NCBI GenBank assembly: GCA_018266055.1
Contig: JAFDYT010000008.1
Span: 152,862-216,861, forward strand
Length of the DNA stretch: 64,000 nt
Reading direction: 5' to 3'
Source of the DNA: Bacteroidota bacterium
Lineage (GTDB): Bacteria; Bacteroidota; Bacteroidia; Cytophagales; Cyclobacteriaceae
Positions 29,807-47,101 of this stretch are shown piece by piece. The translations under genes and the position numbers were made by a program. The notes beneath the pieces are model-generated. The model made no database searches and had not been told where the DNA came from. It saw only the letters and a list, made by a program, of their open reading frames with translations. Every line of letters starts with the position of its first letter. Position 1 is the first letter of the stretch.

Positions 29807-30838
29807 ATGAAGAAGTTATCCCACCTGCTGTTGTTGTTACTCCTCGTTACTGCCTGTGAAGACAAAGAAGCACTCGTTCAGAAATTTCTATTAAAAGGAA
29901 ACATCGCCTCTAAAGAGCGCAACTGGGAACAAGCCAATTACTACTATGCCGAAGCCATTCGCCTTGAGCCTTGCTTTGCCGATGCCTGGAATAACATCGG
30001 TACGGTGTATTTCAAGCAAAAGAACTTTGAGAAGGCTATGGAGAACTACGAGAAGGCTGTATCGTGCAGTCCCAAGTTCATCAACGCGATATTAAACAGA
30101 GCCAACACCGCCTACGAACTGAAACTGTATTACAAAGCCATTGAAGACCTGGAGAAAGCCATCACCATCAAACCCGATACCTCTATTACGTACTTTACCT
30201 TAGGACTTACCTACACCAAACTACGCGAGTTCAACAAAGCTTTGGTTAACTTCGACAAAGCCACACAACGCGCAGGCACCGACACTAAGCAGAAGATTGA
30301 ACTGGCGGTGAACCATGCCATCGTGCAGTATTACAGGAAAAGCTACGACACCGCGAAACTTGAATTGCAAGTTGTCGCTAAGGTGGACGACCACGAACCC
30401 AACATCTACAACACGCTGGCTTTGATTGAAACCGAACGGGGCAACTACAGCGAAGCGTTGAAGTATATCGCCCAAGCCATTCAACTCGATCCGAAGCAAT
30501 CGTATTATGTGAACAACCGCGGGTACATTTATTTACTGCAAGGAGAGCTGGCCAACGCCGAGGCCGACATCAACGAGAGCATTGCCAAAGACCCCGACAA
30601 TCCGTGGGCGTATCGCAACAAAGGAATCTTTTACCTGAAGAAGAAAGAATTTGAGCAAGCCGAGCGCATGCTTACCCAGGCAGAGAAGATGGATCCGTTT
30701 GTCGATAAGGTTTACTTTTATCTTGGCTCGGCGTATCTTGGCAATAGCAAAAAAGAGCTGGCCTGCGCTGCCTTCAGAAAATCAGAAGAGGTGAAGGAAG
30801 CGATGGTCACCAACGACCTGAAGCGCGTGTGTAAATGA
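29807..30838 (+). CDS. TPR repeat lipoprotein
   Basis: Signal peptide with lipobox VTAC (Cys17), then about eight tetratricopeptide repeats across the rest of the 343-aa chain (for example WEQANYYYAEAIRLEP, FEKAMENYEKAVSCSPKF, YSEALKYIAQAIQLDP, EFEQAERMLTQAEKMDP). It is an envelope protein scaffold for protein-protein contacts; partner unknown. Its stop overlaps the Nudix gene start (ATGA at 30835), so the two are coupled. Confidence 0.9.
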   Translation: MKKLSHLLLLLLLVTACEDKEALVQKFLLKGNIASKERNWEQANYYYAEAIRLEPCFADAWNNIGTVYFKQKNFEKAMENYEKAVSCSPKFINAILNRANTAYELKLYYKAIEDLEKAITIKPDTSITYFTLGLTYTKLREFNKALVNFDKATQRAGTDTKQKIELAVNHAIVQYYRKSYDTAKLELQVVAKVDDHEPNIYNTLALIETERGNYSEALKYIAQAIQLDPKQSYYVNNRGYIYLLQGELANAEADINESIAKDPDNPWAYRNKGIFYLKKKEFEQAERMLTQAEKMDPFVDKVYFYLGSAYLGNSKKELACAAFRKSEEVKEAMVTNDLKRVCK

Positions 30839-31467
30839 ACCTTACTGCATTAGCCAATCAACTTCGACAACGACTCACACAACCCTTACCGGGAAGTGCA
30901 GCACATGAGCCATTGCGTGCTGTACCTGTGGGTGCCGTGCGTCCTGACTTCACCCACACACTTCCTCCACGACCGGGAAGTGTGTTGATTGTATTGTATG
31001 AACACGAAGGCCGCATCCGGTTTCCGCTTACCAAACGTCATGATTATCTCGGTGCACACGGCGGACAAATCAGTTTGCCAGGAGGAAAAGCCGAGCCAGG
31101 CGAAGAGGCTGTGCAGACAGCCTTACGCGAAGGTCACGAAGAGATCGGCATCATTCCCAATGACCTTGAAGTGTTGGGCAGACTCAGCGACTTCTTTGTC
31201 ATTCCCAGCAACTTTATGATAGTGCCCGTAGTAGCAGTGGCCAAGGCGCGTCCGTTGTTTATTCCGCAAGAGCGGGAAGTAGAGAAAATCATTGAAGGCG
31301 ATCTTGACTTGCTCTTGCGCGACGACGCCGTGAACGTAGAAGAAATCCTGGCGGCAAAGAAATATCCTATGCGTGCACCCCACTTTAAGATAGAAGGCGA
31401 GATCGTATGGGGCGCCACCGCCATGATGCTCAATGAGCTCAGGGTGATTGTTAAGGAGCTAAAGTAG
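30835..31467 (+). CDS. CoA pyrophosphatase-type Nudix hydrolase
   Basis: The Nudix box GGKAEPGEEAVQTALREGHEEIGI fits GX5EX7REUXEEXGU except Gly for the first U. The preceding block HDYLGAHGGQISLPGG is the CoA/acyl-CoA pyrophosphatase (NudL/UPF0035) signature with the conserved loop before the box. It hydrolyses the pyrophosphate of CoA derivatives or related nucleotides. The protein is 210 aa, close to the family length. It is coupled to the TPR lipoprotein by 4-bp overlap, which is odd because one is secreted and one cytoplasmic. Confidence 0.9.
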   Translation: MNLTALANQLRQRLTQPLPGSAAHEPLRAVPVGAVRPDFTHTLPPRPGSVLIVLYEHEGRIRFPLTKRHDYLGAHGGQISLPGGKAEPGEEAVQTALREGHEEIGIIPNDLEVLGRLSDFFVIPSNFMIVPVVAVAKARPLFIPQEREVEKIIEGDLDLLLRDDAVNVEEILAAKKYPMRAPHFKIEGEIVWGATAMMLNELRVIVKELK

Positions 31468-31808
31468 TTATTCGTTATCTGTTATTAGTTGATCGCGGTA
31501 AGCCAAGCTATTTGTTAACTCTGACAATCTGCACTTCAGGTTTGAAACCAAACCGCCATTAACGAATAACGATTAACGGATAGCATCTAACCGAGACACG
31601 GGGATCGCGCAGCGCCCCATATTTATAGTATTACCTCATCCATGGCACGGCACTCCTTATATATAGGGAACACCAAGATTGACCTAAAACAACAAATGAA
31701 CGCCGTCGCCCTGTGCTTGTAAGATCCGCGATAACCCCTGAAAATCGGCGCATAGAATGATTCAGGTCATGCAGACCCGGAAAAATACCTCGCCAGTAGA
31801 GGAATACA
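31468..31808. other. Gene-free stretch before the tandem array
   Basis: No coding frame with support is present. The first part (31468-31590) contains a stuttering repeat (TTATTCGTTATCTGTTATTA) and an inverted relative (TAACGAATAACGATTAACGG). The rest is a GC-rich, non-repetitive sequence (CACGGGGATCGCGCAGCGCC onward) of unknown nature that could be a structured RNA. The last 21 bases resemble a decayed unit of the array that follows. Confidence 0.4.
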
Positions 31809-32501
31809 TCTCATGTGTACGATGTAGCCTTTCCCGTGTACAATGAAACCTTTCGCGTGTACAATGAAACGTTTCCCGTGTATGAGGAAACCTTTCGTGT
31901 GTATAACGAAACGTTTCATTTGTACAATGAAACGTTTCTTGTGTATGAGGAAACGTTTCTCGTGTATGATGAAATGTTTCCTGTGTATAATGAAATGTTT
32001 CGCGTGTATAATGTAACGTTTCGCGTGTATGATGTAACGTTTCCCGTGTATGATGAAACGTTTCCCGTGTACAATGAAACGTTTCCCGTGTGTAATGAAA
32101 CGTTTCACGTGTACAATGTAGTCTTTCACGTGTATGATGAGACGTCTTGCATGCACAACGAGACATCTTACGTGTACAATGAGACATCTTATGTGTAGGA
32201 CAAGACATCTTTCATGCACAACGAGACATCATTCATGTACAACGAGACGTCTTACGTGTACAACGAGACATCTTACGTGTAGGACAAGACATCTTGCATG
32301 TACAATAAGACATCTTATGTGTATGATGAGACATCTTGCGTGTACAATGAGATATCTTGCATGTAGGATGAGACGTCTTACGTGTACAACGAGACATCTT
32401 ACGTGTAGGACAAGACATCTTGCATGTACAATGAGATATCTTGCGTGTACAACAAGACATCTCACGTGTAGCGCGAGACATCTTACATGTACAATGAGAC
32501 C
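31809..32501. repeat. Array of 33 exactly phased 21-bp tandem repeats in two subfamilies
   Basis: Successive 21-bp units run without a single indel from 31809 to 32501 (33 x 21 = 693 bp). Units 2-14 follow TTTCCCGTGTACAATGAAACG, joined so that GAAACGTTTC palindromes form at each junction. Unit 15 is transitional (TTTC start but GAGACG end), and units 16-33 follow TCTTACGTGTACAACGAGACA. There are many substitutions but no length change. Because 21 is a multiple of three, several frames stay open for 100-150 codons on both strands, yet none crosses the whole array. It is neither a CRISPR (no spacers) nor a recognisable gene. No function known. Confidence 0.95.
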
Positions 32502-32792
32502 TTTTTGCCTTCAAATCGCCTATTTTGCGCGTTTTTCGACGATTTTAAGAGGTAGTGGATCAAATCTGGGTTGATCTGGGATTAGGTAAGAAGTACGAAA
32601 TAAGAGGGTAGAGGCCACGTTCAATCATTCAATCATTCCGTCATCCAATCATTGATTCCCCGCCGAATGCCAGGTGGCGTTGGAGAGAAGAGGATAAAGG
32701 GGTATTTTGGAGGGGGGAATAGAAGGGGGCTTATATCCATTAGGTACATGTAGCTTGATGTGGTATGCCACACCAATAAAAATTAGGTCAAA

Positions 32793-33512
32793 GTGAAAAT
32801 AATTATAACTATTTGTGCATTGTGCCTTTTCACACAAGGTTGTGGACAAGAAAAAAAGAATCAGGTAAACGTGATTACTATTGTCAACATAGGAAATAAT
32901 GATCGGATTGAATTGGGAAAACAACTAAGAATTATACTTGACAACTCCCCCAAACTTGTTGGACTAGATTTTTTTCTCGTTCCTGACAGTTTGGGCAAGG
33001 ACTCAATTCTCGTCAAAGAATTATCAAGGGCTACAAACACAGTGCAGGTAGTTGCATTACATGATTTTGATAGCGTTACAAAAACGTGGAAATACTTAGA
33101 AGTGTCTCATTCAAAATTTAAGGCTACAGCGTATGGTTATTCAAACATAGCGACGACAGATGATTCCGTACTTGTTCGGGGATTGCCATTAAAGCAATCC
33201 TACAAGAATTCATTCATACCTTCTTTCAGTTATGCAATCGCGCAAAAGTATTCAGGCGTAAAGGACAAATACAGAAATACCGATACCAAAGGAATTTCAT
33301 TTCCATTTTTACAATTCGAAAGAGGCTATTCGGTTATTACTAAAGAAGACTTAATGAAGGGTAATTTTGATAAAAGCAATATTGAGGGGAAAATAGTGCT
33401 CATGGGGTACATTGGATACGGTGACGATTATTATCTCGACCATGGACGACATTGGAAAGTGAACGGAGTTGCAATTCACGCGGCGATAATCAATGAAATT
33501 ATAGACCGCTGA
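32793..33512 (+). CDS. Stand-alone CHASE2-like lipoprotein
   Basis: After a GTG start and lipobox TQGC (Cys17), the 239-aa chain resembles a CHASE2 sensory domain. It has NVITIVNIGNNDRIELGKQL at the start, LVGLDFFLVPDS where CHASE2 has the 'vigiDi.f' strand, and closes with GKIVLMGYIGYGDD and VNGVAIHAAIINEII, the characteristic CHASE2 end. CHASE2 is normally the extracytoplasmic sensor of kinases or cyclases. Here no TM helix or output domain follows, so it may be a ligand-binding accessory. It lies in the second AT-rich stretch, bounded by an R1 left end downstream. Confidence 0.7.
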   Translation: MKIIITICALCLFTQGCGQEKKNQVNVITIVNIGNNDRIELGKQLRIILDNSPKLVGLDFFLVPDSLGKDSILVKELSRATNTVQVVALHDFDSVTKTWKYLEVSHSKFKATAYGYSNIATTDDSVLVRGLPLKQSYKNSFIPSFSYAIAQKYSGVKDKYRNTDTKGISFPFLQFERGYSVITKEDLMKGNFDKSNIEGKIVLMGYIGYGDDYYLDHGRHWKVNGVAIHAAIINEIIDR

Positions 33513-46688: not shown

Positions 46689-47098
46689 ACCACATAGGAC
46701 ATAGCGCACATAAGGTTTTCACATAGGGTGTGTTTTCAATGCAAGATGGTGCTATGTCTCCTATGTGTTGGCTCATCTATGTGTCTATGTGGTTAAAAAA
46801 GGCGAGGACTAGGTTTCTATTTGTTGAATGACTTTTACCACATAGGACATAGAGCGCATAAGATTTTCACATAGACTATGTTTCCTATGTGCTGGCTTTT
46901 CCTATGTGTCTATGTGGTTCAAAAAAGGCGAAGACTAAGTTTCTATTTTGTTGAATGACTTTTACCACATAGGACATAGCGCACATAAGATTTTCACATA
47001 GACTATGTTTCCTATGTGTTGGCTCATCTATGTGTCTATGTGGTTCAAAAGAGGCGAGGACTAGGTTTCTATTCGTTGAATGACTTTTACCACAGAGG
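46689..47098. repeat. CTATGTG palindromic repeats (about 3.3 tandem ~125-bp units)
   Basis: Each unit has ACCACATAGGACATAGCGCA, then TTTTCACATAGACTATGTTT, then CTATGTGTCTATGTGG, GGCGAGGACTAGGTTTCTAT and a variable TTGTTGAATGACTTTT. Outer (CCACATAG/CTATGTGG) and inner (CACATAG/CTATGTG) arms form nested dyads. The last unit is cut at ACCACAGAGGAGCC, which abuts the stop of the GxxExxY gene. A copy at 33593 is the same family. It fills the gene-free gap 46656-47101. Confidence 0.9.
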
Positions 47099-47101
47099 AG
47101 C

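What the first reader, a model, noticed from the sequence alone, without database searches (positions are those of the whole stretch)
31809..32501. 33 x 21-bp array with no indels and two subfamilies
The period is exactly 21 bp over 693 bp with heavy substitution but zero length change, unlike a decaying minisatellite. 21 bp equals two helical turns, so every unit faces the same side of DNA. Junctions in the first half form GAAACGTTTC palindromes and units carry TGTACA. The second half switches abruptly to a GAGACATCTTAC type near unit 15-16. Such phasing is expected of a protein-binding array (centromere-like, iteron-like, or nucleoid) or of a coding repeat. No neighbouring partner protein is evident.
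Basis: partly seen in the sequence, partly recalled or inferred. Interest (0 to 1): 0.8.

Follow-up and report, generated by a model that had tools for sequence, protein, structure and literature searches.

The report
Orphan 21-bp array from gene module
The repeat looks like a decaying, gene-less copy of a module found many times in this genome and in distant relatives, in which a tandem array with a steady 21-base rhythm but a different sequence at each place sits just before members of one gene family of unknown function.

Summary
In detail: 33 units of exactly 21 bp (31815-32507), no indels, two subfamilies (units 1-15, 16-33). It is not isolated. DNA before the array (31616-31812) is homologous to DNA before three other 21-bp arrays of the same genome, two of which precede paralogous genes for a ~205-aa protein with a fibronectin-III-like C-terminus. 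Of 14 full or near-full paralogues, 13 have a 20-22-bp-based array upstream; with homologues from genus and family 29 of 40 upstream and 1 of 40 downstream, against 0 of 29 upstream of NUDIX genes. Elsewhere in the phylum 5 of 8 by the same rule, one doubtful. Unit sequences mostly differ between modules; the period hardly does. In five modules a sigma54-like motif precedes the array. The window holds no such gene (best E 0.12), and its copy has stops in the frame that stays open in ten better copies, so I read it as an orphan. Open frames argue for translation in this genome, closed frames in 6 of 20 relatives' arrays against it as a rule; arrays are self-complementary beyond chance on both strands, so I favour a DNA-level leader array. 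Function is inferred. Seven literature searches showed no description.

The parts
31616..31814 (+). Leader region homologous to the leaders of three other arrays of this genome
   Evidence: Pairwise blastn: 70.7% over 140 bp to C12, 62.4% over 197 bp to C19; the 61.3%/266 bp match to C2 runs 67 bp into the array; gapless over 123 nt from the ATG at 57.7-62.6% identity. Not listed by the genome-wide search with the C2 leader.
31696..31814 (+). Remnant of the leader reading frame: conserved ATG (MNAVALCL*...), three stops before the array
   Evidence: Translation and alignment of the ATG with C2, C12 and C19
31815..32129 (+). Array, subfamily A: units 1-15, consensus GTGTATAATGAAACGTTTCCC; 4 stops in the leader frame
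32130..32507 (+). Array, subfamily B: units 16-33, consensus GTGTACAACGAGACATCTTAC; 200 bp of it match the C2 array at 82%; block duplications
32508..32792 (+). Right flank; only 38-52% aligned identity to the right flanks of C2/C12/C19; no Fn3-family gene follows
32793..33512 (+). Next gene, CHASE2-domain protein (lipoprotein-like start, my reading); not homologous to the module's gene
   Evidence: Pfam CHASE2 E 2.1e-14; no Fn3-family hit
30835..31467 (+). Upstream neighbour, NUDIX protein; its homologues in the genus served as control loci

Best explanation
The window array is an orphan, decaying copy of a dispersed module: promoter/leader block, then a 21-bp tandem array, then a gene for a ~205-aa protein with an Fn3-like C-terminus. 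SHOWN: the leader homology, the other arrays, the strong and one-sided association of 21-bp arrays with this gene family in several genera, unit sequences that mostly differ while the period stays, the order promoter-like motif, array, gene in five modules, and the absence of gene and of the open frame in the window copy. INFERRED: the array acts in cis, as nucleic acid, in the transcribed 5' region of the gene. Units of two helical turns carrying dyads give a regular, self-complementary segment (hairpin/cruciform-forming, or covered by a dimeric protein that reads shape or spacing rather than sequence) that sets expression of the gene downstream; the array turns over quickly by block duplication, so each module ends up with its own sequence. 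The orphan in the window presumably no longer does this.
For: Other arrays; shared leader; 16 paralogue matches and arrays upstream. One rule for all: upstream 13/14 own, 10/14 genus, 6/12 family = 29/40, downstream 1/40, NUDIX upstream 0/29; phylum 5/8 upstream, 0/8 downstream, L191 by a single 85-bp duplication. Sigma54-like TTGGCAY-N5-TTG in 8 of 14 own loci against 1 in 800,000 strand-bases sampled, before the array in five. L116/L117: 91% identity over the gene, arrays not aligned. Self-complementarity beyond column-permuted arrays: negative z in 23 of 29, Wilcoxon 1.4e-5, no strand difference, p 0.72. Periods of 20 and 41 bp in two modules fit helical turns, not codons.
Against: 11 of 40 homologues and 3 of 8 phylum loci have no such array. 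Arrays also occur without the gene: two long ones in 800 kb sampled, besides the window and C19. A stricter test of short inverted repeats was not significant (3 of 32 below 0.05, Fisher 0.15), and some arrays are related, so the folding p-values are optimistic. No A-tract phasing. In L122 and L125 the array lies upstream of the promoter-like motif, not in the leader. Six own loci lack the motif. The frame from the ATG is open in 10 of 10 better copies, which a pure DNA role does not require. No expression, binding or strain data.
Confidence: 0.5

Rival explanations
1. Coding repeat: the array is (or in the window was) a translated heptapeptide-repeat region of an ORF that precedes the Fn3-type gene; 21 bp = 7 codons and the frame forbids indels. 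The window copy is its pseudogene.
For: From the conserved ATG to the array end the frame has 0 stops in 9 of 9 modules (395-725 nt); the other two frames have 1-25 stops except one further open frame in L118. A tenth copy, L200, is open too, with one other open frame. Given the open sense frames per array I estimate about 4e-4 for the nine, ignoring kinship. pN/pS in that frame is the lowest of six in 5 of 9. C12/C19 and L118/L200 share in-frame C-termini.
Against: pN/pS in the ATG frame is 2.39 in L114 and 2.46 in L117. Leader and tail differences by codon position show no steady third-position excess (9/9/13, 10/12/9, 12/15/11; 4/5/5, 2/2/2; 8/5/8, 9/3/6) while the gene does (6/11/29). A fully open frame exists on the sense strand in 12 of 14 and 12 of 16 arrays and on the antisense in 11 of 14 and 10 of 16. 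L137, L144, L157, L164, L189 and L190, 6 of 20 relatives' arrays, are closed in all three sense frames, as are L122 and L125, whose 41- and 20-bp periods cannot keep a frame. I see no motif shared by the peptides. Pfam gives nothing credible; one antisense ORF of the window passes the V-SNARE_C cut-off (32.6 against 27.1 bits), which I take for a repeat artefact.
Confidence: 0.3
2. Selfish or neutral satellite: a locus type prone to 21-bp duplication, spread with or without the gene, no function; lack of indels reflects youth and homogenisation.
For: Block duplications; orphan copies without the gene; fast sequence turnover.
Against: The same period recurs upstream of homologues at 26-51% identity in several families, one-sided and absent upstream of the NUDIX controls; unrelated neutral satellites should not converge on 21 bp beside one gene family.
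Confidence: 0.2
3. Sequence-specific protein-binding array (centromere, iteron, nucleoid site) as first proposed.
For: Dyads in many units of the window array; fixed phasing.
Against: Unit sequences differ between modules of one genome, so one sequence-specific protein is unlikely to bind them all; no replication or partition gene among nine neighbours scanned; no plasmid or phage match of the array.
Confidence: 0.08

Closest known systems
Minisatellite / VNTR near genes (review PMC3899988, search listing and start of abstract only)
   Same: Tandem units of tens of bp, block duplication, homogenisation within an array
   Different: Period kept near 21 bp in several families of a phylum while the sequence is free; tied to one side of one gene family
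Coding heptapeptide repeats
   Same: 21-bp period, open frame from a conserved ATG in ten copies of this genome
   Different: Protein-level constraint not clearly seen; 6 of 20 relatives' arrays closed; 20- and 41-bp arrays exist
Iterons / parS-type centromeres (recalled)
   Same: Direct repeats of about 21 bp, dyads
   Different: No Rep or Par gene among the scanned neighbours; sequence not shared between arrays; multicopy in the assembly
CRISPR arrays (recalled)
   Same: Leader followed by an array
   Different: No spacers: units are contiguous and mutated
REP/BIME elements (recalled)
   Same: Dispersed, dyad-bearing, intergenic, with orphan copies
   Different: Long exact-period arrays, different sequence per locus; the linked protein is Fn3-like, not a RAYT transposase

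Membership tests
21-bp array / Fn3-gene module (defined here) | Tandem array of period 20-22 bp or a multiple | tested here: met
21-bp array / Fn3-gene module (defined here) | Leader homologous to other modules | tested here: met
   Pairwise to C2, C12, C19; not listed by the genome-wide search with the C2 leader
21-bp array / Fn3-gene module (defined here) | Fn3-type gene downstream | tested here: not met
   Best of 49 tblastn hits in the window E 0.12, far from the array: orphan, as C19 is
Coding heptapeptide repeat | One frame open through the array | tested here: not met
   No listed ORF spans it; 7 stops in the leader frame. Met in ten other copies
Coding heptapeptide repeat | Purifying selection on the protein | tested here: inconclusive
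   pN/pS lowest in the ATG frame in 5 of 9, very high in L114 and L117; no steady third-position excess in flanks
Iteron / plasmid origin | Adjacent replication gene | tested here: not met
   Nine neighbours by Pfam; no plasmid match
CRISPR | Identical repeats with unique spacers | tested here: not met
Neutral minisatellite | Period drift and indels with age | tested here: inconclusive
   None within the window array; no strain data available
Chromosomal centromere (parS/ParB) | ParB binding, origin-proximal position | not tested
   No parS search was made; binding is not testable here
Sigma54-dependent promoter (for the modules) | -24/-12 element before the array | tested here: inconclusive
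   Motif in 8 of 14 own loci, before the array in five; other modules, C19 among them, lack it; consensus recalled; rpoN not searched; the window leader was not scanned for it

The most novel reading that the evidence does not exclude
A class of cis elements in which period, not sequence, is the conserved information: a tandem array of two-turn, self-complementary units in the leader of one Fn3-type gene family, with a new sequence at nearly every locus while its 21-bp rhythm and position are kept across much of a phylum, i.e. a 'rhythm-coded' regulatory or translated leader.
Probability: 0.35. Interest if true: 0.85.

Novelty: categorically new. Interest (0 to 1): 0.72.

Why it matters
If the period is under selection while the sequence is free, this is a cis element that sequence-based searches can hardly see, present many times in one genome and linked to one gene family for which I found no function, in several families of a phylum. 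It offers a direct test of whether helical phasing, self-complementarity or mere translatability is what is selected, since some thirty natural variants with the same rhythm and different sequences are listed here. Some contigs of this assembly begin inside such arrays (L120, L121), and the arrays yield long repeat ORFs on either strand that an annotation could mistake for genes.

Tried and rejected
Coding test on the window array alone: no frame with low pN/pS in A, B and C2 alike. Genus search with the array DNA: 2 of 58 genomes, the own one and a 34-bp match at E 0.009 with no tandem repeat around it. Family pattern search: 1 of 295, the own genome. Order search with the profile: 5 of 390 at E 0.01; besides the own genome, three of the four others have short 20-22-bp repeats of other sequence, whose neighbours I did not examine. 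Of the own-genome profile's weak places, C17 showed no array on reading. Named genome collection by pattern: 11 stretches; five (L048, L049, L052, L054, L056) hold arrays of period 21 with other units, not pursued. Viral, plasmid and phage collections: nothing for the array or the protein. Rfam at gathering score: one tRNA in the window. RNA folding of the window array, z -9.5 and -11.7, was set aside because a tandem array can beat dinucleotide shuffles by repetition alone; column permutation replaced it. Short inverted repeats as a rule: not significant. A-tract phasing: rejected. Shared ORFs downstream of the modules: no blastp pair at E 1e-4 among ORFs of 80 aa or more in 13 loci. Literature: seven searches, listings and abstract starts only, no paper opened; I saw no description of such arrays. 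Structure prediction was not run: the homologues came from the genome search, which that tool's list of allowed sources does not name.

Rows dropped and limits: of 16 paralogue matches two fragments at contig ends (L126, L127) were left out; L123 is cut by a contig end. Own genes refetched and five genus loci reappearing were counted once. Some flanks are short (L119-L121 upstream, L123 downstream, L024). One search used a looser TRF setting; one search repeats it with the rule. fold only the first 252 or 189 nt of each array; one search leaves out eight arrays (L131, L134, L140, L141, L143, L144, L162, L163). WIN-A/WIN-B/L112, L113/C19, L118/L200 and L115/L201 are related. The L118/L200 comparison from the ATG (16/16/16) was out of register and is not used. 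The 40 sampled stretches were spread by hand, several at contig starts, not drawn at random.

Full report
1. The array. It is as described: 33 contiguous units of exactly 21 bp at 31815-32507, with substitutions but no length change, and a switch of consensus at unit 15/16. The second half contains block duplications (63-bp row; units 22-23 recur as 28-29). It lies in the 1.3-kb gap between a NUDIX gene and a CHASE2-domain gene, both on +. No listed ORF crosses the whole of it, and within-array substitution ratios give no frame that behaves as coding in both halves and in the second genomic array.

2. More arrays in the same genome. Searching the window's own assembly with the array DNA found a second array on contig C2, 82% identical to part of the B half, running in 21-bp phase across a masked stretch. 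A sequence profile of 63-bp windows gave the two known arrays and, at E 0.14 and 8, places on C12 and C19. Both proved to be 21-bp arrays with different units; a place on C17 at E 0.31 did not. The DNA beside the C2 array recurs beside the C12 and C19 arrays (E 2.8e-33 and 4.7e-23). The DNA beside the window array is homologous too by direct comparison: 70.7% over 140 bp to C12 and 62.4% over 197 bp to C19, both outside the array. The genome-wide search with the C2 leader did not list it, so the window copy is the most diverged of the four.

3. The gene. On C2 and C12 the array is followed by paralogous genes of about 205 codons; on C19 and in the window it is not. tblastn found 16 matches in the genome, two of them fragments at contig ends. 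Of the 14 others, 13 have an array upstream with period 20-22 bp or a multiple; the fourteenth, L124, has only 2-copy traces. Consensus units differ (for example AGATCATCATCTCTGTGTCGA, TGCATCACGTGCTACTGCAAC, TATATCGATACCCGTAACGAT), though some arrays still align to each other, L120/L121 and L118/L120 among them. Two arrays have period 41 (20+21) and 20. The protein is Fn3-like at the C-terminus: weak Pfam matches to fn3-type domains in up to 5 of 13 members, PDB matches to gp130 at E 4e-5, weak PHROG tail-protein matches in 3-5 of 13. The N-terminal half has no assignment.

4. Relatives. The gene is patchy: 7 of 56 genomes of the genus, 6 of 295 of the family in 3 of 84 genera, 8 of 395 of the phylum in 7 of 170 genera, own genome included each time. 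With one rule (TRF score 50, at least 55 bp, period 20-22 or near a multiple) arrays are found upstream in 13/14 own, 10/14 genus and 6/12 family loci, 29 of 40 in all, and downstream in 1 of 40; NUDIX control loci give 0 of 29 upstream and 1 of 29 downstream. The same rule gives 5 of 8 upstream and 0 of 8 downstream in phylum loci; L191 passes only by a single 85-bp duplication, and L194 and L195 match in the Fn3 part alone. These proteins are 26-51% identical to the query set. In 800 kb sampled from the own genome, arrays above the length floor occur at one known module (L197), at two long gene-less arrays on C3 that align to modules L118 and L115, and, short, at C20:535-656, C17:106-178, C3:181985-182058 and C10:69270-69340. 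So nearly every gene copy in this genome has an array, but arrays also occur alone.

5. Layout. L115-L118 and L122-L125 share a block with TTGGCAY-N5-TTG, which resembles the sigma54 -24/-12 element (consensus recalled); an upstream inverted repeat is clear in some of them, as in L118. The motif occurs once in both strands of 400 kb sampled. In five modules the order is motif, array, gene; in L122 and L125 the array lies before the motif; L124 has the motif and no array. L112-L114 share a different leader and, like L119-L121 and C19, lack the motif. rpoN was not searched.

6. Is it translated? From the ATG conserved after the promoter block or leader, the frame runs open to the array end in 9 of 9 modules and in the orphan L200. 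Given how many of the three sense frames are open in each array (one in six modules, two in three), the nine-fold agreement has a chance of about 4e-4; the modules are partly related, so this is approximate. Against translation as the reason for the period: flanking parts of these frames show no steady third-position excess while the gene does; pN/pS in the ATG frame is lowest in 5 of 9 but 2.39 in L114 and 2.46 in L117; a fully open frame is found on the antisense strand almost as often, 21 of 30 against 24 of 30 arrays; 6 of 20 relatives' arrays are closed in every sense frame; and periods of 20 and 41 occur. The window copy has three stops in the leader and four in the A half of this frame.

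7. What the units share. Against arrays with permuted columns, real arrays fold better on either strand (negative z in 23 of 29, Wilcoxon 1.4e-5; Fisher 2e-8 and 1e-7), with no strand difference (p 0.72); an earlier run on 26 arrays gave Fisher 1e-7 and 7e-6. A stricter search for short inverted repeats in the consensus units was not significant (3 of 32 below 0.05, Fisher 0.15). Strand symmetry points to DNA-level dyads or to hairpin-mediated array growth rather than to one selected RNA strand. Phased A-tracts are not a general feature.

8. Reading. I conclude that the window array is an orphan, decaying copy of a dispersed promoter-array-gene module (about 0.85 for this identity), and that the array most likely works in cis at the nucleic-acid level in the leader of its gene (about 0.4 for this mechanism). 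Translation of the array in this genome is the main rival and the two are not exclusive. I call the module categorically new because I could file it under no system I know and seven searches of open papers showed none; that is a limited search. The taxon is not named by the tools; from gene content I take it to be Bacteroidota, which is recall and not a result.

Noticed in passing
window 46752-47099: A second, longer tandem repeat in the window: 2.8 copies of a 127-bp unit, 90% matches.
   Followed up: no
L077 1490-1553 and L094 about 1546-1612 (genome G413, another family of the order): Two copies of a long palindromic element built from AAAATGAGACGTCTTATTG-like pieces, close in wording to subfamily B units but arranged as an inverted repeat.
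   Followed up: partly
L079 1440-1680 (genome G652): Several copies of ACGTCTTTTTTGTAGCAG at irregular spacing, with a distant extra copy: a dispersed repeat of another make.
   Followed up: no
L048 4641-4717 and L054 1-200 (Prevotellaceae MAG): 21-bp arrays of one unit at the ends of two contigs of the same MAG, which suggests an assembly broken inside an array.
   Followed up: no
L049 6695-6929 (Spirochaetaceae MAG): 11 units of 21 bp with TGTCTTTTGTAAAAGAC-type dyads, in another phylum by its label; neighbouring genes not examined.
   Followed up: no
L169 535-1925 (G000 C20 start): A short 21/42-bp array just before an ORF that looks like an IS256-type transposase (family name recalled, not tested).
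   Followed up: no
L116 1318-2233 and L117 1341-2255: Two paralogous modules with 91% identity over the gene and 82% in the leader but arrays that do not align: array sequence seems to turn over faster than its flanks.
   Followed up: partly
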